A stretch of 64,000 nucleotides of DNA, taken from the NCBI GenBank assembly GCA_015062805.1, contig SUTQ01000003.1, forward strand, positions 1-64,000, in the 5' to 3' direction. A program made the position numbers and the translations under genes. Positions 10,080-48,669 of this stretch are shown here, in pieces; position 1 is the stretch's first letter; each line of letters begins with the position of its first letter. The notes below the pieces were generated by a model. It was given only the letters and a program-made list of their open reading frames with translations, searched no databases and had not been told where the DNA came from. Source of the stretch: Methanosphaera stadtmanae. Its GTDB lineage: Archaea > Methanobacteriota > Methanobacteria > Methanobacteriales > Methanobacteriaceae.

Positions 10080-10880
10080 TTATTTAAAATAACGATGCAA
10101 TTTATTATATATTTTCTCCGTCAGTGGTAATGAAATAAAAATATATACATATATACCAAATATAAGTGAAACTAAATTAGAGATTCCACTAAATGCCAAC
10201 AGATTTTCTGACAATTCCGGATAAAGTGAAGTGAGTGAAGAAATAGCTGCAACGTTCATACTCGTACTACCAATACCAGTCGCTAGTGCAAAACTGTAAG
10301 GATGTAATGGAATAACATAACACAAGAAATTAACCAAAAAAGTTATAAATACTGTCCCTAATACTATACCAATCAAATATACGATGAAAAAACCTTTAAC
10401 TTCATCTGAATCAAAGCCGTATTTTTCAATCAACACAGCCAATTGTGGTTCACGACAAATAGAACTAGTCATACCTATAGACTCACGTTTAAAACCCAAC
10501 AATAAAGCAATAGGCAAACCAATCAATACTGTTCCAATGCTTCCCAACTCTTTTAAAAATAATAAAGGTCCAACATTAAATAACAAAGAAATATTTTGTC
10601 CACTGGCAATTGCAAGTTTAACTAATAAAGGACCAATGAGTATTAATATTAAACTTGTACATTTTTTAGATTGATTATAGTTAACCCACTTAAATGGTTT
10701 TAAAATATAAAACAAAATTGCCAAAAATAATGAAATAATAAATGGGAAAATAATTAAATTTACATTTGAAAAGATAGGTAGTTTAATTGTTCCATAGGCT
10801 AATGAAAATATTGAAATTATTAAAATTGTTAAATATAATTTATAATCGTTTAAAAGACTTTTTTTAGAATCTTTAACCAA
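10080..10880 (-). CDS. DUF3100-like multi-pass membrane protein (second paralogue)
   Basis: 266 residues with about eight hydrophobic segments; the family assignment to DUF3100 is from recall. It begins at a TTG with AGGTTGG upstream. The core LLVKLAIASGQN, GLPIALLLGFKRESIGMTSSICREPQ, LHPYSFALATGIGSTSMN and the closing ITEKIYNKLH segments are shared with the paralogue at 11407-12264. The family resembles small-molecule carriers, but the substrate is unknown. It is the last gene of a three-gene minus-strand operon. A 95-bp stretch coding for the GLPIALLLGFKRESIGM region is nearly identical in DNA to its paralogue, far above the rest of the gene. Confidence 0.75.
   Translation of the reverse strand: MVKDSKKSLLNDYKLYLTILIISIFSLAYGTIKLPIFSNVNLIIFPFIISLFLAILFYILKPFKWVNYNQSKKCTSLILILIGPLLVKLAIASGQNISLLFNVGPLLFLKELGSIGTVLIGLPIALLLGFKRESIGMTSSICREPQLAVLIEKYGFDSDEVKGFFIVYLIGIVLGTVFITFLVNFLCYVIPLHPYSFALATGIGSTSMNVAAISSLTSLYPELSENLLAFSGISNLVSLIFGIYVYIFISLPLTEKIYNKLHRYFK
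10443..10537 (-). repeat. 95-bp near-identical segment shared by the two DUF3100-like genes (copy 1)
   Basis: Matches 11806-11900 at 93 of 95 positions (differences are single transitions), including synonymous codon positions, while flanking sequence is well diverged. Gene conversion is the likely cause. Confidence 0.85.
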
Positions 10881-11406: not shown

Positions 11407-12264
11407 TTAAATTTCCTCTTCATCGTAATTTCTTCCAGTTATCCTATCGCTTATAGGTTCAAGAATATCATATAATTTTTCAGTTATTGGAATAGCTGCA
11501 AAAATATAAACATACATTCCTGTTACCATAGCTATCAAATTAGCCATTCCACTAAATGCTTCTAATTGACCGGCATATTGTGGATATACTGCAGACAATG
11601 AAGCAACCGCTGCAGCATTCATACTTGCACTACCAATACCACATGCCATTCCATATGCAAATGGATGTAAAGGTATCAAATAAGCTAGAATACTAGTCAT
11701 AATACTAATAAATGGCGTTCCTAACACGGTTCCTATTAAGAAAACTGTAAAAAAACCCCTTGTTTCAGGTGAAGTAAACCCATACCTATCCATAACCACG
11801 GCCATTTGTGGTTCACGACAAATAGAACTAGTCATACCTATAGATTCACGTTTAAAACCCAACAATAAAGCAATAGGCAAACCAATCAATATTGTTCCAA
11901 AGTTTCCTAATTGTTCTAATAATATTGCTGCTCCAACATCAAAAATAATTGGTAAATTTTGACCACTTGCAATCGCTAATTTAACCAATAACGGACCAAC
12001 AAGTAACATCATAATAGCAGAAGATTCAGAAGATTGTTTTTTATCTATCCATTTAAATGGTTTTGTTATATAAAATGCTATTGCCAATACTAATGCATAT
12101 AATAAAGGCATGAGAACAATATTTACTCCAGCAATTTCTAATGCTATCACACCTATATATTCTGAAATGATTACACAAAGCAAAATAGTTAAATGTAACT
12201 TATAATCCTTAAATGCTTCATCCAAATCTTCCATTCCTGAATTATACTTATTTTTAATAGGCAT
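11407..12264 (-). CDS. DUF3100-like multi-pass membrane protein (first paralogue)
   Basis: 285 residues, first gene of the operon, with GGAGATT seven bases before the ATG. After a short hydrophilic N-terminus it shows about eight hydrophobic segments. Conserved core as in the paralogue at 10080-10880: LLVGPLLVKLAIASGQN, GLPIALLLGFKRESIGMTSSICREPQMAV and IPLHPFAYGMACGIGSASMN. The Ser/Gly-rich helices with a paired inverted look suggest a transporter; substrate unknown. The stop codon touches the start of the five-helix partner gene. Confidence 0.75.
   Translation of the reverse strand: MPIKNKYNSGMEDLDEAFKDYKLHLTILLCVIISEYIGVIALEIAGVNIVLMPLLYALVLAIAFYITKPFKWIDKKQSSESSAIMMLLVGPLLVKLAIASGQNLPIIFDVGAAILLEQLGNFGTILIGLPIALLLGFKRESIGMTSSICREPQMAVVMDRYGFTSPETRGFFTVFLIGTVLGTPFISIMTSILAYLIPLHPFAYGMACGIGSASMNAAAVASLSAVYPQYAGQLEAFSGMANLIAMVTGMYVYIFAAIPITEKLYDILEPISDRITGRNYDEEEI
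11806..11900 (-). repeat. 95-bp near-identical segment shared by the two DUF3100-like genes (copy 2)
   Basis: Partner of 10443-10537; 93 of 95 bases identical, offset 1363 bp in direct orientation. Confidence 0.85.
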
Positions 12265-39020: not shown

Positions 39021-42000
39021 TTAACCTTCCAACCATTTATTATATATTTCCATATATTCCTCAGACATTTTTTTAGTTGATTTAAATGTAATATTACATA
39101 TTTCTTGAGTAGTTTTGTTGTATTTATCAGGATTTCTTGAGATTTCAATTATTTTTTCAAAAGCTTTTTTAGCATCGTTTTCGATAAAGAAACCACCACC
39201 ACATTTCTGAACTCTTTCCCCTAAAGCACCTATATTTATAACCAATACTGGAACTCCACAGCTCCAAGCTTCAGTTAAAGTATGACAATACGTTTCAGGC
39301 CATATGGACAATATTCCTATATAATGCGGATTGATTTTGTGTATGATTTTACAGAAATCACTACGATTATAATAACCATGGTGAATGCCTACCTTATCTA
39401 ATTCAAAATCTTCTCTTAAATTACCCATATAATGGAATTCTAAGTTATTTTCTTTATCCAACTCTTTTATCGATTTAATTAACAATCCACCCTTATTATA
39501 ATTTATATGTCCCGGAAATACGATTTTTATTGGTTTATCTATTGATTCTATATTATCAATTTTAGATGGAGTGGTTAAATCTCTTCCATGTTCAATAATA
39601 TCAAATGGTTTTTCTTTTAATTCTGGATAAAATTCAACATACAAATCATAAGCAGACTTTGAGGTAGTTACAAATTCAGAACAATATTCAATCATTTCAC
39701 GAACATAATCACGCCATTTATATACGAATGTTTTTAGTAAAGGAACATTTAATCCACTTGTAACCGAACATTGTTCATCAGGTTCATCTGGATATTGTGT
39801 ACAATGACCGGCACAATAATTGTGTTTATCATCAATTAAACAATGGGATGGGCAAATATAATAAAAATCATGGAATGATAATATAATTGGTATACCTAAT
39901 GTTTTAGCTATTTTTGGTAAATCAAATGTATGTCTGATTAAATGTCTGATGTGTATAAGATCAATTTTTAAATTATGAAGAACATTAAAGTATACTCTTG
40001 AAAAACACTCATTGTATGGTTCTTTCAAGGTATAATCCTTAATTTTCCATTTTGCAAGTTCATATAAATTTGTTTTAAATTCTTCATCATTAATAGCTTC
40101 TGATTTTGATTCCGAATTATTGATATAATCATAATATCTAAATAATTTTAAGTGTGATTTACCTGCTGTTAAAACGTAAACATCATACTTTTCATTAACA
40201 TGTTTCATTAATTCTATACTTGTGTGTAAAGTTCCTCCAGTTCCTTCATGTATAACATACAACAATCTTTGTTTATTATACTGTTGAAGTTTTTTAGAAT
40301 CCAAAATTCTTCTAATTTTTCTTCTTTGATCATAATATTCCTTAGAATTTATGAAAGCATTTATTTCTTCTTTATAATTTGGATATTTTTCATTTAATAA
40401 TTCCCTATTCTTATTAATCAATTTTTCTTTTTCATCTGAAAAAGATACGCTTCCTTTATGGTAAATGTATGTAGACATGTCCACAATATGTTTCCATTGT
40501 TTGTTTAATAATCTCATTGAGAAATCATTTTCTTCACCATAACCTTTTCCAAATGCCAAATCAAATAAACCTACGGAATAAATTGCATCTCGTTTAATAT
40601 ACATACAATACCCATTTGCCGTTGGGGCATATAATTCATTATGTGAAATAACTTTTTCAATTATGTTTGCTGTACCACATAACCCTAATTCTTCATTTAT
40701 ATCATTTTCTTGATTAATTAACGGAACACTAAATGCTCCCGCATTATTTGATACTGGAGTAACTGTAGCTATATCTGGACTAGAATATGCTGATATTTTT
40801 AATTTCTGTAACCATTTATGTGTAACAATTGTATCACTATTTAATAATACTACATCATTACTAGTCTTCTTAAATGATAAATTTACATTTCTTACAAATC
40901 CCATATTTTCTTCATTATTAATTACTTTGACATTTTCGATTTTTGAATAAGAATCCAATAATGGTAAGATTCTATCATCAGTACTACAATCATTAATTAA
41001 TAATAATTCATATGGAACATTAGTATTATTTATTACACTATCAATGCACTGTTTGGTTTCTTCAAGAGCATTATAAATTGGAATAACTATTGAAACTTTT
41101 TCTTCAAATGAATCCAATATTGTTCTAATTTGATTTTTATGGTATTTTAACTCTTGATATTTATTGAAAGTGTGTTTTACTCGTTGGAAATACTCATTTT
41201 TAAAGTAAAATAATGGTGCTTCATCATATTTAAAATTATTTCTCCAACAAACATAATTAAAACTCAGTTGATCTCGTCTACTATAATTAGTTACCTCATC
41301 AAACCAGTCTTCACATAATTTGATTACTTTATCATCATGATGATCTCGGAATAGAATTCCACTAGCTATTAACCCATTATGTTCTGGATAGTCCAATTGC
41401 CTATATTTTTCTATTTGTAAATTTATGATATCCTCTGAATCTTTTTGCATTTCTATACAAGTTTCTGCTTCTTCATAAATACAATCTCTTAAATCATGCT
41501 TAATGGCCAAAAATTTATTCGTTTTGGAATATTTGGTAATATATTGTTTTAAACTACCTATAATATCAAAATTTGCATCAATCCATATTGAATAATCATA
41601 TTCTTTAAGATATTTGTGAGGCAATAATTTATAGTATCTTGCTTTACGAATTCCATCCAAATCCAATTCTTCCATATAACGAATATCCCAGAATTCTGAT
41701 TTCAAATCAGGATTATCTGTGAAACATATATAATCAAAATCTTCTTCAATCACTTGTGGTGTAATAATTTCATCATAACTACCTGTAATAGCTGTGTAAA
41801 CAACAATTTTTTTATCAGAGAAGTTAAGATAGTCTTTTTTAAGTGAAATAAGATCTTCTAAAGATTTAATTGGATTTAATTTTGTATCAACTTCATCCAA
41901 TATATTTCCTGTTAATGTTGCTTCATAAATGACAGATATTTCTAAGAAAGGTATCAACTGTATAAATGAAGATAAATACTCTAAAGCAGGTTGATAGAAG

Positions 42001-45000
42001 TTCCTAATATATTTAACATATATTAAATCTATTTTAAGATTATTTAATATGTTGAAATATAGTGTCAAATATACATATGCAGACCAATCTCTCCGAATAT
42101 TCCATTTTTTATATAATGAAGTGATGTTGTTATCATTTTGATACAAATATATCATATTAGATTCTATTACTAAAATATATACATTATATTTAGAAGACAA
42201 TTCATCAAATCTTTCATCTAAGTTTGGAACCCCATCGGTAGAATCAGTAACATACAAAATACGCTCAGCATTATCCCCACCAACAACAGAACTCCTAATC
42301 CTATCAAGAGACTTAGTCAAACGAACATCACCAACAAAAGCATCCCACTCATCAAAAATATTAGGATGCTTCAAAGCCAAATACTCCTTATTCCTAACCT
42401 TAAGCTCACTACGAACATCATCACCAAAAGAAGCATTCCTCTTATGATAAACAAACACAGAATCATTACGAATATTACGCCAACCAGCCTCTACAGCACG
42501 ATAAGTAAAATCAGACTCCTCACCATAACCAACACCAAACTTCTCATCAAACAAACCAATATCATCAATAACAGCACGCTTAATAAACAAACAAAAACCA
42601 TTACCCGTAGGAGAAGAAAAATATCCATAATCACTAAGCTTATTAACCAGATAAGCATTCCTATTCAAAGACAACTGATCAACAGAAGCACCCAACTCCT
42701 CAACACAAATATCACTAGCATTACTCAAAGGAGTAACAGTAGCAACATCATCAAAACTATAAGCAGAAACAACCAAATGACTCAACCAACGAGGAGTAAC
42801 AACAGTATCACTATTCAACAACACAACATCAAAATCAGACTCACAAATACCCTTATTAACATTCTTCACAAAACCCTGATTAACCTCATTACGAATAACA
42901 CGAACAAACGGAAGAACCTCAAGAGAATCCAACAAAGAACCTATACGCTCATCAGTACTACAATCATCAATCAAAATCAACTCATAATCAACACCAGTAT
43001 TCAAAAGAACACTACGAATACACTCACTAGTCTCCTCAAAAGCATTAAAAATAGGAACAATAATAGAAACTTTCCTATTCAAAGCATTTAAAATGGTTGT
43101 AACATCTTCATCAGATTGTAAAGTATCAAAATCACCAAGTATGTCATCAGTTACTGCAAATAATTCCCTTTCTTCTATTAAACCATTGTTTATATAATGA
43201 ACCAATGGATTTAAACCTGAATTTGCAACATCAACATATGTTTTTTTATATCTTCTTGTTGAAAAGGAATAAGAAGGATTATAATCTTTTTTATATCCAT
43301 AAACTATATAATGAAGAATTGGATTCATTTCCATACGTTTTATTTCCGGATATTTTTCAATATAATACCCTTTATCAAAGAGAGGGGAGTTCTTTATAAT
43401 GGTATAATTATTTAATAACGAGACATAACTATCTTCATCATAGAAAAATTGGTTCATTGAAGAGAATATCTCCGATTCATCCAAATAATCAAGAGATGAA
43501 CTAATATAATTAAAAGATAAAGAATCTTTGATATTATATTTTGTAACTTCTTCAAACCAATCATTAGATAATCCGATTACTTCCTCATCATTATGATTTC
43601 TAAAAAGTACATTAGTTGAAATTAATCCATTTTCAAACAAACCTTTAAGTTTATATTCGTTAATCCGGATTTTTGAATCTTGTCCCGAATTATCATCCAA
43701 ATTACTGTAAAATTCTCTTTCTTCAAATACTGTGTTAATATTATCCTGTTTTAATGCTAAAAACTTATTATTTTTGAAAAATTTTCCAACAAATTTTTTT
43801 AAATCATCTATGATATCAAATGTATAATCTATCCAAAGGGAATAGTCATATTCTTTAAGATACTTATGAGGTTGTAATTTGATAGAATTATACAAGACTT
43901 CAATTGCTAAATTAGAATTTTCAATAAGTTTTATATTCCAAAAATCTGATTTCAAATTAGGATTATTTGTAAAACATATATAATCAAAATTATCATTTAC
44001 TACAGTTGGCCTTTTTAAATAATCTTTTTCATCGAAGATTGCTGTATAAACCACTATTTTTTTATCATTCAAAATTAGTTCCTGTTTTTTATCTTCAATC
44101 AAATCATTTAACTCTTTTACTGGATTTAAGTTTTCTTCAACTAATTTTAAAATATCTTCATAAAGAGTTGTTTCATAAAGGACTCCTATTTCTAAAGGGG
44201 CAGCTAATGAAACAATAGATGAAATGTAATCTACAATCGGATCATAGAAAATGTTAAAAAATCTAATATACATTAAGTCAATTTTTACATTATACAAAAC
44301 TTTAAAGTAAATATTTAAATAATTAGTTAATGTCCATTCTTCTTCAACTGACCATAATTTAATTACTGATAATATTCCATCAACATAATGATATAAATGT
44401 ATATCATGTACTGCTAATAAAAGAATGTAAACATCATATCTTGAAGACAATTTGCTTAATTGGTCATCTAAGTTTGCAATACCATCGGTAGAATCAGTAA
44501 CATACAAAATACGCTCAGCATTATCCCCACCAACAACAGAACTCCTAATCCTATCAAGAGACTTAGTCAAACGAACATCACCAACAAAAGCATCCCACTC
44601 ATCAAAAATATTAGGATGCTTCAAAGCCAAATACTCCTTATTCCTAACCTTAAGCTCACTACGAACATCATCACCAAAAGAAGCATTCCTCTTATGATAA
44701 ACAAACACAGAATCATTACGAATATTACGCCAACCAGCCTCTACAGCACGATAAGTAAAATCAGACTCCTCACCATAACCAACACCAAACTTCTCATCAA
44801 ACAAACCAATATCATCAATAACAGCACGCTTAATAAACAAACAAAAACCATTACCCGTAGGAGAAGAAAAATATCCATAATCACTAAGCTTATTAACCAG
44901 ATAAGCATTCCTATTCAAAGACAACTGATCAACAGAAGCACCCAACTCCTCAACACAAATATCACTAGCATTACTCAAAGGAGTAACAGTAGCAACATCA

Positions 45001-45740
45001 TCAAAACTATAAGCAGAAACAACCAAATGACTCAACCAACGAGGAGTAACAACAGTATCACTATTCAACAACACAACATCAAAATCAGACTCACAAATAC
45101 CCTTATTAACATTCTTCACAAAACCCTGATTAACCTCATTACGAATAACACGAACAAACGGAAGAACCTCAAGAGAATCCAACAAAGAACCTATACGCTC
45201 ATCAGTACTACAATCATCAATCAAAATCAACTCATAATCAACACCAGTATTCAAAAGAACACTACGAATACACTCACTAGTCTCCTCAAAAGCATTAAAA
45301 ATAGGAACAATAATAGAAACCTTCCTATTCAAAGCATCAAGTACAATATCTTTATCAATATTATTTTTTGAAATATATTCACAAGTTGAAAAAGCTTTCC
45401 TACCCTCTTTTTGACCATTTTTAAGAAAATGATATAATGGATTTAAACCAGCATTTTCTACATCAGGATAATTTTCATAGTATTTTTTTGTTGAAAAATC
45501 TTTAGAAGGATTATATCCTTTTTTAGCACCATATTCCAAATAATGTAAAATAGGATCTAATTCCATTTCCAAAACTTCAGGATAATTGTCCAAATAATAA
45601 TTTTCATCAAATAAAACTGATTTTTTAATTATTTCATATTCATTTTTATAAGTATTTGAAAGAGTTTCAGATGTTTCAACTGATTTTTTTTGTTTTTCAA
45701 AATTATCTGATGTGTTTTGAATATGATTATTTCCATCCAT
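39021..45740 (-). CDS. Giant multidomain glycosyltransferase with duplicated modules
   Basis: 2239 residues. Unit 1: paired Y-Y-x-x-Y-P-(D/E)-V repeats with NPL-H-L-x-x-G (about 45-120), GT2 domain (135-390), a shortened GT4-like Rossmann part (to about 560), and a DUF616-like part (KKIVVYTAIFDEKDY, HKYLKEYDYSLWID). Unit 2 repeats all four from about 790 to 1500. Unit 3 has a third, diverged GT2 (1545-1790) and a complete GT4 domain (1825-2239; GHINYNKGGLLI, ILSIWPETYCHTLTEAWSCGVPVLV). The unit 1 and unit 2 GT2 parts are coded by almost identical 856-bp DNA. GGGATGAT precedes the ATG. It probably builds a repeating surface glycan. No signal peptide; cytoplasmic or membrane-associated. Confidence 0.88.
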   Translation of the reverse strand: MDGNNHIQNTSDNFEKQKKSVETSETLSNTYKNEYEIIKKSVLFDENYYLDNYPEVLEMELDPILHYLEYGAKKGYNPSKDFSTKKYYENYPDVENAGLNPLYHFLKNGQKEGRKAFSTCEYISKNNIDKDIVLDALNRKVSIIVPIFNAFEETSECIRSVLLNTGVDYELILIDDCSTDERIGSLLDSLEVLPFVRVIRNEVNQGFVKNVNKGICESDFDVVLLNSDTVVTPRWLSHLVVSAYSFDDVATVTPLSNASDICVEELGASVDQLSLNRNAYLVNKLSDYGYFSSPTGNGFCLFIKRAVIDDIGLFDEKFGVGYGEESDFTYRAVEAGWRNIRNDSVFVYHKRNASFGDDVRSELKVRNKEYLALKHPNIFDEWDAFVGDVRLTKSLDRIRSSVVGGDNAERILYVTDSTDGIANLDDQLSKLSSRYDVYILLLAVHDIHLYHYVDGILSVIKLWSVEEEWTLTNYLNIYFKVLYNVKIDLMYIRFFNIFYDPIVDYISSIVSLAAPLEIGVLYETTLYEDILKLVEENLNPVKELNDLIEDKKQELILNDKKIVVYTAIFDEKDYLKRPTVVNDNFDYICFTNNPNLKSDFWNIKLIENSNLAIEVLYNSIKLQPHKYLKEYDYSLWIDYTFDIIDDLKKFVGKFFKNNKFLALKQDNINTVFEEREFYSNLDDNSGQDSKIRINEYKLKGLFENGLISTNVLFRNHNDEEVIGLSNDWFEEVTKYNIKDSLSFNYISSSLDYLDESEIFSSMNQFFYDEDSYVSLLNNYTIIKNSPLFDKGYYIEKYPEIKRMEMNPILHYIVYGYKKDYNPSYSFSTRRYKKTYVDVANSGLNPLVHYINNGLIEERELFAVTDDILGDFDTLQSDEDVTTILNALNRKVSIIVPIFNAFEETSECIRSVLLNTGVDYELILIDDCSTDERIGSLLDSLEVLPFVRVIRNEVNQGFVKNVNKGICESDFDVVLLNSDTVVTPRWLSHLVVSAYSFDDVATVTPLSNASDICVEELGASVDQLSLNRNAYLVNKLSDYGYFSSPTGNGFCLFIKRAVIDDIGLFDEKFGVGYGEESDFTYRAVEAGWRNIRNDSVFVYHKRNASFGDDVRSELKVRNKEYLALKHPNIFDEWDAFVGDVRLTKSLDRIRSSVVGGDNAERILYVTDSTDGVPNLDERFDELSSKYNVYILVIESNMIYLYQNDNNITSLYKKWNIRRDWSAYVYLTLYFNILNNLKIDLIYVKYIRNFYQPALEYLSSFIQLIPFLEISVIYEATLTGNILDEVDTKLNPIKSLEDLISLKKDYLNFSDKKIVVYTAITGSYDEIITPQVIEEDFDYICFTDNPDLKSEFWDIRYMEELDLDGIRKARYYKLLPHKYLKEYDYSIWIDANFDIIGSLKQYITKYSKTNKFLAIKHDLRDCIYEEAETCIEMQKDSEDIINLQIEKYRQLDYPEHNGLIASGILFRDHHDDKVIKLCEDWFDEVTNYSRRDQLSFNYVCWRNNFKYDEAPLFYFKNEYFQRVKHTFNKYQELKYHKNQIRTILDSFEEKVSIVIPIYNALEETKQCIDSVINNTNVPYELLLINDCSTDDRILPLLDSYSKIENVKVINNEENMGFVRNVNLSFKKTSNDVVLLNSDTIVTHKWLQKLKISAYSSPDIATVTPVSNNAGAFSVPLINQENDINEELGLCGTANIIEKVISHNELYAPTANGYCMYIKRDAIYSVGLFDLAFGKGYGEENDFSMRLLNKQWKHIVDMSTYIYHKGSVSFSDEKEKLINKNRELLNEKYPNYKEEINAFINSKEYYDQRRKIRRILDSKKLQQYNKQRLLYVIHEGTGGTLHTSIELMKHVNEKYDVYVLTAGKSHLKLFRYYDYINNSESKSEAINDEEFKTNLYELAKWKIKDYTLKEPYNECFSRVYFNVLHNLKIDLIHIRHLIRHTFDLPKIAKTLGIPIILSFHDFYYICPSHCLIDDKHNYCAGHCTQYPDEPDEQCSVTSGLNVPLLKTFVYKWRDYVREMIEYCSEFVTTSKSAYDLYVEFYPELKEKPFDIIEHGRDLTTPSKIDNIESIDKPIKIVFPGHINYNKGGLLIKSIKELDKENNLEFHYMGNLREDFELDKVGIHHGYYNRSDFCKIIHKINPHYIGILSIWPETYCHTLTEAWSCGVPVLVINIGALGERVQKCGGGFFIENDAKKAFEKIIEISRNPDKYNKTTQEICNITFKSTKKMSEEYMEIYNKWLEG
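42232..43087 (-). repeat. 856-bp direct repeat inside the giant glycosyltransferase gene (copy 1)
   Basis: Identical to 44482-45337 apart from one base I could find (T at 43071, C at 45321). The offset is 2250 bp, exactly 750 codons. It codes for residues about 885-1170 (GT2 module). Codon use on the coding strand is almost entirely GAG, AAG, TTG, CGT and NNT, unlike the GAA, AAA, TTA and AGA of the flanks. Confidence 0.97.
44482..45337 (-). repeat. 856-bp direct repeat inside the giant glycosyltransferase gene (copy 2)
   Basis: Codes for residues about 135-420. See the partner at 42232-43087. Both edges are sharp: identity ends at the same codon position in each copy and the flanks are clearly diverged. 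Confidence 0.97.
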
Positions 45741-45807: not shown

Positions 45808-48669
45808 TTAATTATTTAGTTTTGAGTTTTCCTCGATTAGTTTAATGAAAGTCTTTACTCTATCTTCATATGTATGACCTGATACATCATTTATTATCTT
45901 TTCAGATTTATTTAAATTATCTTCAATAATCTGATCTAATTCTTCTTTCGTATTATAAGTGAATATTCTATTAGGGAATAATTCATTTATTCCTTCTACA
46001 TTATCTGAAATAACTATAGAACCACAAGCTATAGCATCGAATATTCTGTTTGATATAAAACCAAGTTCTCTCATATCTTCCCAATGGTCATTTAATAGTA
46101 TTTTACATGATGAATATGCTTGACGCAACATGTTATTAGGTATGTTTTCTCCTTTAATATATTCAGAATCGATTATTCCCGTCCAACCAGCACCATATAC
46201 TGATAAGTCATATTCAGTTGGGAGAAGATCCTTGATAATTTTTCGGTACTCATTTCTAGAATTTCCTACAAATAACAATTCTGATTCATATTTTTCATTG
46301 AAATCTGGATAAAATCTATTAATATCTGTACATTGGAACATACAATCAACTGGCTTATCCACATATTTTTTTATTTTATTTGTCCAAATTTTTGACGCTA
46401 TAAAAACATAGTCGTATAACTCATATTCCAATAAGGATACTGCTTCTGGATGTGATATATTCCACATAATATTGAAATGTTGGATTTTTGGCTCATAATA
46501 AGACAATCCTCTTAAAACGATTACTGTATCTACGAGCACATCCTCTGAATTGTTCCATTCTGGCAATAGTTGTATTTTTGTTGAATAACCTTTTTTTTCA
46601 AATCCCTTTTTTAATCCTTCAGCAACAAAATAATCTCCCCATTGATGTATTTGATCCCATGAAGGAACAGGTACTTTAATTGCTACTTTTGGTGTTTTAT
46701 AATATTTTTGCAATATCTTTTTAAGAAAATCAGCCCTATGTTTGTATGTGTGATTATCTAAAACTATTTTTTGAAGTAATTTAATTTTTTCAGCTCTTTT
46801 TTCAGGATTTTCCATATAATATTTGATTAATCCCATTAAATCTTCTTCAGAATGATATTCCGGAATTTGACCCCCAAATAATTCATTATTCCCATCAGTA
46901 CCATTTGTAATAACCAATTTTCCTGAAGAAAGTGTATCAAATACTCTGCTATTTACAGAAGCCCATTCCTTTGTAACATGATTTGCATCATCTATTACAA
47001 TTTTACAAGAGGAATAAACTTGGGGCATATCCAAATAATTTACGAACCCTTTATAATAATTAGATAATTTTGGTATTTTTTCCCAGTTAACACCATATAA
47101 ATTAAAAAGGTAATCCGTTGAATCAGGATTTAAGTAATCAATTATTTCACGTTTAGCATCCCAATAACTTCCTGTAAAACAATAATCACACAAATATTCC
47201 TTATCTTCTGGAATTTCAGCATTAAACATTGTATTATCTGATGCTAAAGGATATAATAAAGCTTCCATTCCTGTTTTTTCTTTTATAAAATCACATGCTT
47301 TTTGACTACTTGCAAGGATTATATCATATTTAATAAATGAAGGATTTTCTAACCATCTTTCAAACCAATTTCTTAACCAAGCTATTTTAACTAATAACCC
47401 ATTTTTACATTTTACTTTACTTAAATCATATGCATCAAGCAATGATATTAAAATATCAACATCTTCATCAACGACATACCAATCATTTTCTTCATCAGAG
47501 GATATTCTTGATTGATATTTAATCTCCCAACCAAATTTTTTTAATTGATTTGCTAGAGTTAATGCAGTGAAATAGTCTCCTGCCGTAGTGTTTTCGTCTG
47601 ATTGAGTTACAACAAAAGATACCGTGAAGTTTTTATCAGAGAAAATATGTTCATTTTTTAATTTATCATCTATAAGTTTTTTTCTTAACCACTTATTCCA
47701 TTTTTTGATAAAAATATTTTGATTATTTAAACGTCTTTCTATAACATCCTTTCTATCATTTTTTTCTTGAGTTCCAAACTCATAATGATATAATACAGAT
47801 TGAGGATTGTATATGTTTTTATAACCCTTTTTATATAATTTTAAACATAAATCAACATCTTCATATCCATAAATATAACCTTCATCAAATCCACCAACTT
47901 CAATATAAACAGATTTTTTTATCAATAGACATGCAGCTGTTACTGCAATAATTTCTTCTTCTGTAAATTTGTTAGTTAAATCAGAATAATTTACACCATT
48001 ATCCCTATTAAATGGTTTTATATAACCATTACCCTCTTTAAATATTATTCCAGAATGTTGTATTGTATAGGATTTATCTTTATTTAATGTTGAAGATTCA
48101 CAATTGGGGTATATTAATTTAGAACCTACTGCACCTACATTTTCATTTGACAACATTGTATTTAAAAGATGATTTAACCAACCATCCAATGGTTTAATAT
48201 CGTTATTTAAAAATAAAAGATAGTCTCCTTTAGAAATTTCAACTGCTTGATTATTGGCATGTGAAAAACTATGATTTTGATTATTTTGAATCAATGAAAT
48301 AGGTAATTTAGTAAAACTTTTAATTAATTCTATGGAATTATCAGTTGAATCATTATCTACTATAATTAGCTCATAATTTAAATGAATTGTCTCATCAATA
48401 ACACTTAATAATCGTTTTAAATGAGTTTCACCATTTCTATTAATAATTATTATCGATACTAAAGGAGAATTTTCAAATAAGGGAATATCATTATTCTGAT
48501 TATCAAAATTTATTAAATCAATAACATTTGTTTCATCATCAATAACCATAGTACTATTATCTGATAATAGAGTTCCATTAAACTCAACATTTTCATCTAA
48601 ATTATTGACTAAAAATTCTTTTGAATTATTATTATGAACGTTTTTATTATTTAAATTAAAAATTCCCAT
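45808..48669 (-). CDS. Multidomain glycosyltransferase: GT2 plus two CgeB-like GT-B parts
   Basis: 953 residues. An Asn-rich N-terminus of about 60 residues leads into a GT2 domain (about 65-330) with VSIIIINRNGETHLKRLL, LIIVDNDSTDNSIELI, GDYLLFLNNDIKPLDGWL and GYEDVDLCLKLYKKGYKN, all key residues intact. Next comes a GT-B-like part (about 345-660) and another (about 680-950), each ending with a similar acceptor/donor motif: NSRVFDTLSSGKLVITN and SNRIFDAIACGSIVISD, as in CgeB-like proteins. GAGGGAA precedes the ATG. It lies 67 bp upstream of the giant gene on the same strand and they are probably co-transcribed. Confidence 0.88.
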   Translation of the reverse strand: MGIFNLNNKNVHNNNSKEFLVNNLDENVEFNGTLLSDNSTMVIDDETNVIDLINFDNQNNDIPLFENSPLVSIIIINRNGETHLKRLLSVIDETIHLNYELIIVDNDSTDNSIELIKSFTKLPISLIQNNQNHSFSHANNQAVEISKGDYLLFLNNDIKPLDGWLNHLLNTMLSNENVGAVGSKLIYPNCESSTLNKDKSYTIQHSGIIFKEGNGYIKPFNRDNGVNYSDLTNKFTEEEIIAVTAACLLIKKSVYIEVGGFDEGYIYGYEDVDLCLKLYKKGYKNIYNPQSVLYHYEFGTQEKNDRKDVIERRLNNQNIFIKKWNKWLRKKLIDDKLKNEHIFSDKNFTVSFVVTQSDENTTAGDYFTALTLANQLKKFGWEIKYQSRISSDEENDWYVVDEDVDILISLLDAYDLSKVKCKNGLLVKIAWLRNWFERWLENPSFIKYDIILASSQKACDFIKEKTGMEALLYPLASDNTMFNAEIPEDKEYLCDYCFTGSYWDAKREIIDYLNPDSTDYLFNLYGVNWEKIPKLSNYYKGFVNYLDMPQVYSSCKIVIDDANHVTKEWASVNSRVFDTLSSGKLVITNGTDGNNELFGGQIPEYHSEEDLMGLIKYYMENPEKRAEKIKLLQKIVLDNHTYKHRADFLKKILQKYYKTPKVAIKVPVPSWDQIHQWGDYFVAEGLKKGFEKKGYSTKIQLLPEWNNSEDVLVDTVIVLRGLSYYEPKIQHFNIMWNISHPEAVSLLEYELYDYVFIASKIWTNKIKKYVDKPVDCMFQCTDINRFYPDFNEKYESELLFVGNSRNEYRKIIKDLLPTEYDLSVYGAGWTGIIDSEYIKGENIPNNMLRQAYSSCKILLNDHWEDMRELGFISNRIFDAIACGSIVISDNVEGINELFPNRIFTYNTKEELDQIIEDNLNKSEKIINDVSGHTYEDRVKTFIKLIEENSKLNN

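What the first reader, a model, noticed from the sequence alone, without database searches (positions are those of the whole stretch)
42232..45337. Two almost identical 856-bp modules inside one gene, predicted to recombine in frame
Copies at 42232-43087 and 44482-45337 differ by one base in my comparison. They are direct repeats exactly 2250 bp apart, so recombination between them would remove 750 codons in frame and leave a 1489-residue protein with one unit. That makes the gene a natural candidate for length variation of a surface-glycan enzyme. Sharp borders and strong divergence of the flanks indicate gene conversion or a recent cassette insertion.
Basis: partly seen in the sequence, partly recalled or inferred. 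Interest (0 to 1): 0.85.

Follow-up and report, generated by a model that had tools for sequence, protein, structure and literature searches.

The report
Gene-converted enzyme module with strand-biased codons
A gut archaeon's sugar-transferring enzyme carries the same 856-base module twice, kept identical by the two copies overwriting each other, and that overwriting appears to have removed nearly every A and C from the third letter of its codons, which may be the fingerprint of an unusual archaeal mismatch-repair enzyme.

Summary
Confirmed: window 42232-43087 and 44482-45337 differ by 1 base in 856, lie 2250 bp apart, in frame, in a 2239-aa multidomain glycosyltransferase gene of a Methanosphaera species. 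All about 20 orthologues and close paralogues read in the genus have one D-GT2-TOD1/MUCI70 unit; only this gene has two. The units are sister copies (100/99), so this is a lineage-specific tandem duplication, not an inserted cassette. Outside the module they have diverged to 45% amino-acid identity, and the first TOD1 domain has lost 39 of 98 conserved positions. The GT2 module has been homogenised by gene conversion (839-nt identical run; permutation maximum 48).

New: the module's codons end in T or G (282/286; rest of gene 880/1665), switching at the identity borders. The bias separates keto from amino bases, not GC from AT. Other homogenised repeats show it too: tandem ilvH pairs in 8 species and two adhesin-like genes. 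Local keto/amino strand patches occur genome-wide in M. stadtmanae. My leading mechanism is strand-polar biased gene conversion by EndoMS/NucS, which repairs only G-T, G-G and T-T mismatches and is present in all 20 genomes. That mechanism is inferred. Length variation between strains was not testable.

The parts
39021..45740 (-). Multidomain glycosyltransferase gene, 2239 aa, order D-D-G-X-M1-D-D-G-X-M2-H-R
   Evidence: ORF and translation; Pfam: 3 x PF00535, 2 x PF04765, PF00534/PF13439
44482..45337 (-). Module copy 1: GT2 domain (aa 135-420), codons ending in T or G (282/286)
   Evidence: 1 mismatch in 856 against copy 2; composition
42232..43087 (-). Module copy 2: the same GT2 domain (aa 885-1170)
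   Evidence: K3 280/285
45387..45608 (-). D repeat of unit 1 ('YYLDNYPEV...NPLYHFLKNG' type)
   Evidence: Segment blastp against orthologues
43155..43376 (-). D repeat of unit 2; 54% aa identity to unit 1; sister in the D tree
43416..44051 (-). M1: TOD1/MUCI70-like domain of unit 1, fast evolving; 39 of 98 conserved columns of X-M changed
41187..41801 (-). M2: TOD1/MUCI70-like domain of unit 2, conserved (5 of 98 columns changed)
40341..41102 (-). H: second, distinct GT2 domain, normal third-position composition
39033..40340 (-). R: C-terminal GT4-type (Glycos_transf_1) domain, normal composition
44616..45371 (+). Antisense ORF of 251 aa over copy 1: a by-product of the missing third-position A (no antisense stops), not a gene
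   Evidence: inference
42366..43091 (+). Antisense ORF of 241 aa over copy 2: same by-product
   Evidence: inference

Best explanation
Shown by sequence: in this Methanosphaera lineage the D-D-GT2-X-TOD1 part of a conserved glycosyltransferase gene was duplicated in tandem. The first TOD1 domain then diverged fast while the GT2 domains stayed identical, so the GT2 domain has been homogenised by gene conversion between the two copies in the same gene. Inferred (about 0.65): conversion was repeated and long-lasting, and each round was biased by base class on one DNA strand. One strand drifted to keto bases (G/T) and the other to amino bases (A/C) wherever the protein allowed. Inferred (about 0.35): the cause is EndoMS/NucS. 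It attacks keto-keto mismatches (G-T, G-G, T-T) and ignores A-C, A-A and C-C. If the invading strand at a locus always has the same polarity, a heteroduplex that would write a keto base over an amino base is destroyed, while the reverse passes. A crossover between the copies should occasionally delete 750 codons and restore the single-unit form (untested).
For: Single-unit architecture in all relatives. Units sister 100/99, branches 1.42 versus 0.14. M1 degraded, M2 conserved. 839-nt identical run, permutation maximum 48; synonymous identity 1.00 inside, 0.64 outside. K3 (third position G/T) 282/286 inside, 880/1665 in the rest, Fisher p 8e-64, borders coincide. Orthologous GT2 modules in six other species have normal composition. 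Fourfold sites T107 G7 A2 C1 inside, A193 T186 G26 C25 outside: T/(T+G) .94 versus .88, so only the keto/amino class moved. Tandem ilvBH: ilvH copies identical with K3 0.00-0.07 in this genome, ilvB 54-89% identical with K3 mostly 0.2-0.57. ilvH K3 0.05-0.31 in all 8 species, identity-K3 rho -0.51, p 2e-4. The only three of 29 loci plus the window with internal repeats of at least 85% identity found are all skewed (.99.88.81). DNA-level patches: neighbours on opposite strands r .19, spacers r .31. NucS in 20/20 genomes; NucS mismatch specificity (PMC11551767; PMC8228993); nucS deletion severely impairs gene conversion in Haloferax (PMC11276520). A toy simulation of the veto reproduces 98% one class, unchanged within-class ratio and high identity; without the veto composition stays put.
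Against: In M. stadtmanae only about 10% of intragenic repeat windows of at least 97% identity are skewed, against about 1% elsewhere, and there is no rank correlation there. Skewed patches also occur in single-copy genes, so paralogous conversion is not the only route. The direction (coding strand keto in the GT gene, amino in ilvH) is not predicted. NucS is present in nearly the whole phylum; the one genome without it has 0 long NNK runs, but so do three NucS-bearing genomes. Most other skewed loci of this genome were found by composition, so they are ascertained. The sister species G015 shows the signature at a contig end, but its second copy is not assembled, and the D tree weakly (88/78) puts G015 outside the pair.
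Confidence: 0.6

Rival explanations
1. Homogenisation by ordinary, unbiased gene conversion; the keto/amino patch has an independent local cause (for example a strand-asymmetric mutational process) and merely coincides with it.
For: Patches also occur in single-copy regions, e.g. G017 1648000-1652976. Many near-identical repeats of M. stadtmanae are not skewed.
Against: Patch and identity borders coincide in the GT module and in ilvH, and ilvH skew tracks identity across species. Deamination-type mutation cannot turn fourfold A into T, yet T/(T+G) is unchanged while A vanishes.
Confidence: 0.25
2. The GT2 module is a foreign cassette with odd codon usage, recently copied into both units.
For: Composition differs sharply from the flanks; the module's terminal branch (0.64) is long in the GT2 tree.
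Against: Flanking domains of the two units are sisters, so the duplication spans far more than the module. The same signature sits in ilvH, a core gene duplicated in situ in many species of the genus, and in orthologue G015 at the same border. Genome-scale patches exist in M. stadtmanae.
Confidence: 0.06
3. Assembly artefact: short reads collapsed two diverged modules into one sequence.
For: 50-contig draft genome; an 856-bp repeat exceeds short reads.
Against: Collapse cannot merge modules as different as the flanks (third-position identity 0.50), and the loop topology forces two occurrences. The closed M. stadtmanae genome shows the same pattern at ilvH. It could hide a few differences or extra loop copies.
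Confidence: 0.04
4. Diversity-generating retroelement or other adenine-directed mutagenesis of one copy from the other.
For: Two near-identical copies; A almost absent from third positions.
Against: C is lost too; in ilvH the coding strand loses G/T instead. The only reverse transcriptases found are Ty3/gypsy-like polyproteins on other contigs.
Confidence: 0.01
5. Selection for codon usage or RNA properties in this domain.
For: Strict T-else-G codon choice.
Against: Only the duplicated domain of one gene is affected, orthologous modules are normal, and patches ignore coding strand (opposite-strand neighbours and spacers correlate).
Confidence: 0.03

Closest known systems
mtrA-1/mtrA-2 long-lasting domain-limited gene conversion in methanogens (PMC4632066)
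   Same: One domain homogenised while the rest of the two copies diverges; methanogenic archaea; long-lasting
   Different: Two separate genes; no keto/amino strand signature was reported in the passages read. Here both copies lie in one polypeptide and the tract has switched base class
GC-biased gene conversion
   Same: Recombination with biased mismatch handling that shifts composition in hotspots
   Different: Here the axis is keto versus amino on one strand; G+C at fourfold sites is not raised (8/117 versus 51/430)
EndoMS/NucS non-canonical mismatch repair (PMC8228993, PMC11551767)
   Same: Its substrate set (G-T, G-G, T-T; not A-C, A-A, C-C) is exactly the keto/amino axis; it limits homeologous recombination, and nucS deletion impairs gene conversion in Haloferax (PMC11276520)
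   Different: No source I found links it to strand-asymmetric composition. A 2026 M. tuberculosis preprint (PMC13061034) only suggests that repair asymmetry in recombination could reshape composition of paralogous regions
GT2 / TOD1-MUCI70 / GT4 multidomain glycosyltransferases of Methanosphaera
   Same: Same domain order as all orthologues
   Different: Extra D-D-GT2-X-TOD1 unit with a degraded first TOD1 domain

Membership tests
Concerted evolution by gene conversion | Copies in one genome more alike than to orthologues | tested here: met
   GT2 modules 99.9% nt identical versus about 57-65% aa identity to orthologues; ilvH within species .78-.99, between .68-.88
Concerted evolution by gene conversion | Tract with borders inside an older, diverged duplication | tested here: met
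   Identical run 839 versus permutation maximum 48; flanks 45% aa identity; units sister
Concerted evolution by gene conversion | Conversion seen in strains or cultures | not testable with these tools
   One genome per species held
GC-biased gene conversion | Rise of G+C at neutral sites | tested here: not met
   Fourfold G+C 8/117 inside, 51/430 outside
GC-biased gene conversion | Strand symmetry | tested here: not met
   Coding strand third positions T/G only in the GT module, A/C only in ilvH
Strand-polar keto/amino-biased conversion by NucS (proposed here) | NucS present | tested here: met
   20/20 genomes; MutS_V hits weak, absent in M. stadtmanae
Strand-polar keto/amino-biased conversion by NucS (proposed here) | Within-class base ratio unchanged | tested here: met
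   T/(T+G) .94 versus .88
Strand-polar keto/amino-biased conversion by NucS (proposed here) | Absent where NucS is absent | tested here: inconclusive
   One NucS-less genome, 0 runs; some NucS+ genomes also 0
Strand-polar keto/amino-biased conversion by NucS (proposed here) | Skew rises with homogenisation | tested here: inconclusive
   Yes for ilvH (rho -.51) and repeats found by identity; weak or absent for most intragenic repeats of M. stadtmanae
Diversity-generating retroelement | DGR reverse transcriptase with template repeat | tested here: not met
   Only Ty3/gypsy-like RTs on other contigs
Multidomain glycosyltransferase (GT2, PF04765, GT4) | Domain hits above curated cut-offs | tested here: met
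   PF00535 191 bits, PF04765 82 bits, PF00534 39 bits
Length-variable repeat gene | Different repeat number in strains | not testable with these tools
   No second genome of the species

The most novel reading that the evidence does not exclude
Methanosphaera, and perhaps other archaea that rely on NucS, undergo a strand-asymmetric biased gene conversion: NucS vetoes keto-keto mismatches, so recombining DNA drifts to T/G on one strand and A/C on the other. Composition patches would then record where, and with which strand polarity, recombination has happened.
Probability: 0.35. Interest if true: 0.9.

Novelty: new variant of a known kind. Interest (0 to 1): 0.76.

Why it matters
Biased gene conversion is known as a GC effect. 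Here the bias separates keto from amino bases on one strand, which is the mismatch specificity of the archaeal repair enzyme NucS. If correct, synonymous composition can be read as a map of recombination tracts and their strand polarity in NucS-using archaea, a missing link between NucS biochemistry and genome evolution becomes testable, and codon-based inferences (selection, lateral transfer, antisense ORFs) in these genomes need correction. The GT gene also shows one domain locked by conversion while its partner domain decays or changes function.

Tried and rejected
Recurrent conversion between the G and H GT2 domains of the same gene: same-gene identity does not exceed cross-species identity. 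DGR: rejected. Close relatives in plasmid records: none. First genome-contig scan with the whole protein: no relative; the second, with alignment A1, gave named loci. NNK in 50-codon runs across the genus was swamped by overlapping and low-complexity hits; the run-start pattern worked. Sense-strand translational selection: rejected by opposite-strand and spacer correlations. A replication-arm explanation looks unlikely: correlation is gone by two genes and directions look mixed along the chromosome by eye. Proof of duplication in sister species G015: not possible; the contig ends 29 codons into the module, 88 nt, close to the maximum k of 87 in the MEGAHIT co-assemblies of that study, which hints at a repeat but is not proof.

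Full report
THE OBSERVATION. The two 856-bp copies differ at one base and lie 2250 bp apart in one frame. They are in ORF 39021-45740 (-), 2239 aa. Pfam gives three GT2 domains, two TOD1/MUCI70 (PF04765) domains and a C-terminal GT4-type domain. The order is D-D-G-X-M1, D-D-G-X-M2, H, R, where G is the repeated GT2 module, M the TOD1/MUCI70 domain, H another GT2 and R the GT4 domain. Self-comparison shows the module lies inside a diverged repeat of about 2250 bp.

ORGANISM. Contig lengths and organism names of related loci place the genus as Methanosphaera. G017 has the length I remember for M. stadtmanae DSM 3091 (own knowledge). The window lies in contig C11 (169945 bp) of a 2.1-Mb, 50-contig genome.

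ORIGIN. About 20 orthologues and close paralogues in the genus have one G-X-M unit behind a variable number of D repeats; only the window's gene has two. In a tree of X-M the two window units are sisters with 100/99 support and branches of 1.42 (unit 1) and 0.14 (unit 2); the D parts are sisters with 94/88. So the unit was duplicated in tandem in this lineage. Unit 1's X-M then evolved fast: it departs at 39 of 98 conserved columns, including invariant R, H and D/Q positions, while unit 2 departs at 5. M1 is probably inactive or altered (inference).

GENE CONVERSION. Inside the module 280 of 280 aligned codons are identical; outside, 45% of amino acids agree and 64% of codons among identical residues. 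The longest identical run is 839 nt, against at most 48 in 2000 permutations. That is conversion confined to one domain. G and H of the same gene show no sign of conversion with each other.

THE CODON SIGNATURE. In the module codons end in T (75%) or G (24%), almost never A or C; elsewhere in the gene A3 is about 40%. T/G at third positions: 282/286 and 280/285 in the modules, 880/1665 in the rest, 16-25 of 38 in each adjoining stretch. Orthologous modules in six other species are normal. At fourfold sites the module has T107 G7 A2 C1, the rest A193 T186 G26 C25: the T:G ratio is kept and only the class changes, so this is not GC bias. The sister species G015 has the same switch at the same border (29/29 codons) before its contig ends. 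That contig stops 88 nt in, near the largest k-mer (87) of the MEGAHIT co-assemblies reported for those MAGs (PMC6785717); this suggests, but does not show, a repeat there.

OTHER LOCI. A search for long T/G-third runs in the same genome found about 15 islands; most lie in repeat-bearing genes. This set is selected by composition. The best is the tandem ilvBH duplication: ilvH copies are 100% identical over about 100 codons with third positions nearly all A/C, while ilvB copies are mostly 54-89% identical with K3 mostly 0.2-0.57. The other species were not selected by composition: in all 8 species with both copies read, ilvH has K3 0.05-0.31 (genome mean 0.47), within-species identity .78-.99, and lower K3 with higher identity (rho -0.51, p 2e-4). 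In the first self-repeat scan, chosen without regard to composition, only the GT gene and two adhesin-like genes (L073, L089) had long internal repeats of at least 85% identity, and all three are skewed (.99.88.81).

GENOME SCALE. In the closed genome G017, windows far from mean K3 make up 2.0% of unique, 8.2% of 80-95% repeat and 11.9% of at least 95% repeat windows, with few families behind the last figure. Within its intragenic repeats of at least 97% identity about 10% of windows are extreme, against about 1%, but rank correlation is nil: recent expansion gives identity without skew. Patches belong to DNA strands, not genes: opposite-strand neighbours correlate (r .19, p 5e-4), spacers follow (r .31, p 2e-18), and the effect fades within about two genes. 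The keto/amino axis is the most over-dispersed third-position axis in Methanosphaera and relatives (2.8-3.2, against 1.3 for GC); in the bacterial loci at hand it is GC (2.1-4.3, against 1.4).

MECHANISM. NucS is present in 20/20 genomes. MutS-type hits are weak and absent in M. stadtmanae. NucS repairs G-G, G-T and T-T mismatches in vivo and no others tested; the Thermococcus enzyme does not bind C-C, A-C or A-A (PMC11551767; PMC8228993). In Haloferax a nucS deletion has a severe gene-conversion defect (PMC11276520). With a fixed invading strand, replacing an amino by a keto base makes a keto-keto mismatch (attacked) and the reverse makes an amino-amino mismatch (ignored). A toy simulation gives 98% one class, unchanged within-class ratio and high identity; without the veto identity rises with no composition change. 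What fixes the polarity is unknown, and nothing here tests NucS directly. Long runs are absent in the one NucS-less genome but also in three NucS-bearing ones.

PRIOR WORK. Domain-limited long-lasting conversion is known for mtrA in methanogens (PMC4632066). A 2026 M. tuberculosis preprint suggests that recombination repair asymmetry may reshape paralogous regions (PMC13061034). I found no report of a keto/amino strand bias tied to conversion in two targeted searches of the open library.

VERDICT. Observation confirmed; gene conversion supported; cassette insertion not supported; length variation untested. The codon signature is the more surprising result and has a testable candidate cause.

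Noticed in passing
L358 (G000:C39) and L359 (G000:C5): Ty3/gypsy-like retrotransposon polyproteins on other contigs of this archaeal assembly; likely eukaryotic contamination of the draft genome (inference).
   Followed up: partly
G017 1648000-1652976: A 5-kb patch over single-copy genes on both strands with A/C at third positions on the + strand: strand skew without any repeat.
   Followed up: partly
G021 (same order, 1.5 Mb): 50 runs of at least 41 codons ending in G/T (or A/C on the other strand), many apparently in housekeeping genes: keto/amino patches are not limited to Methanosphaera.
   Followed up: no
window 45808-48669 and L071 11767-14625 (G000:C46): The gene upstream of the GT gene (953 aa, GT2 + Glyco_trans_1_2) has a 71% identical paralogue of the same length on another contig.
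   Followed up: no
L313 5899-10462 (G000:C9:47898-52461) and orthologues: Tandem ilvBH duplication in many Methanosphaera with ilvH under concerted evolution; contigs of several MAGs break inside it.
   Followed up: yes
window 10103-10742 / 11466-12106: Two 72% identical stretches in neighbouring 266- and 285-aa genes, without codon skew.
   Followed up: no
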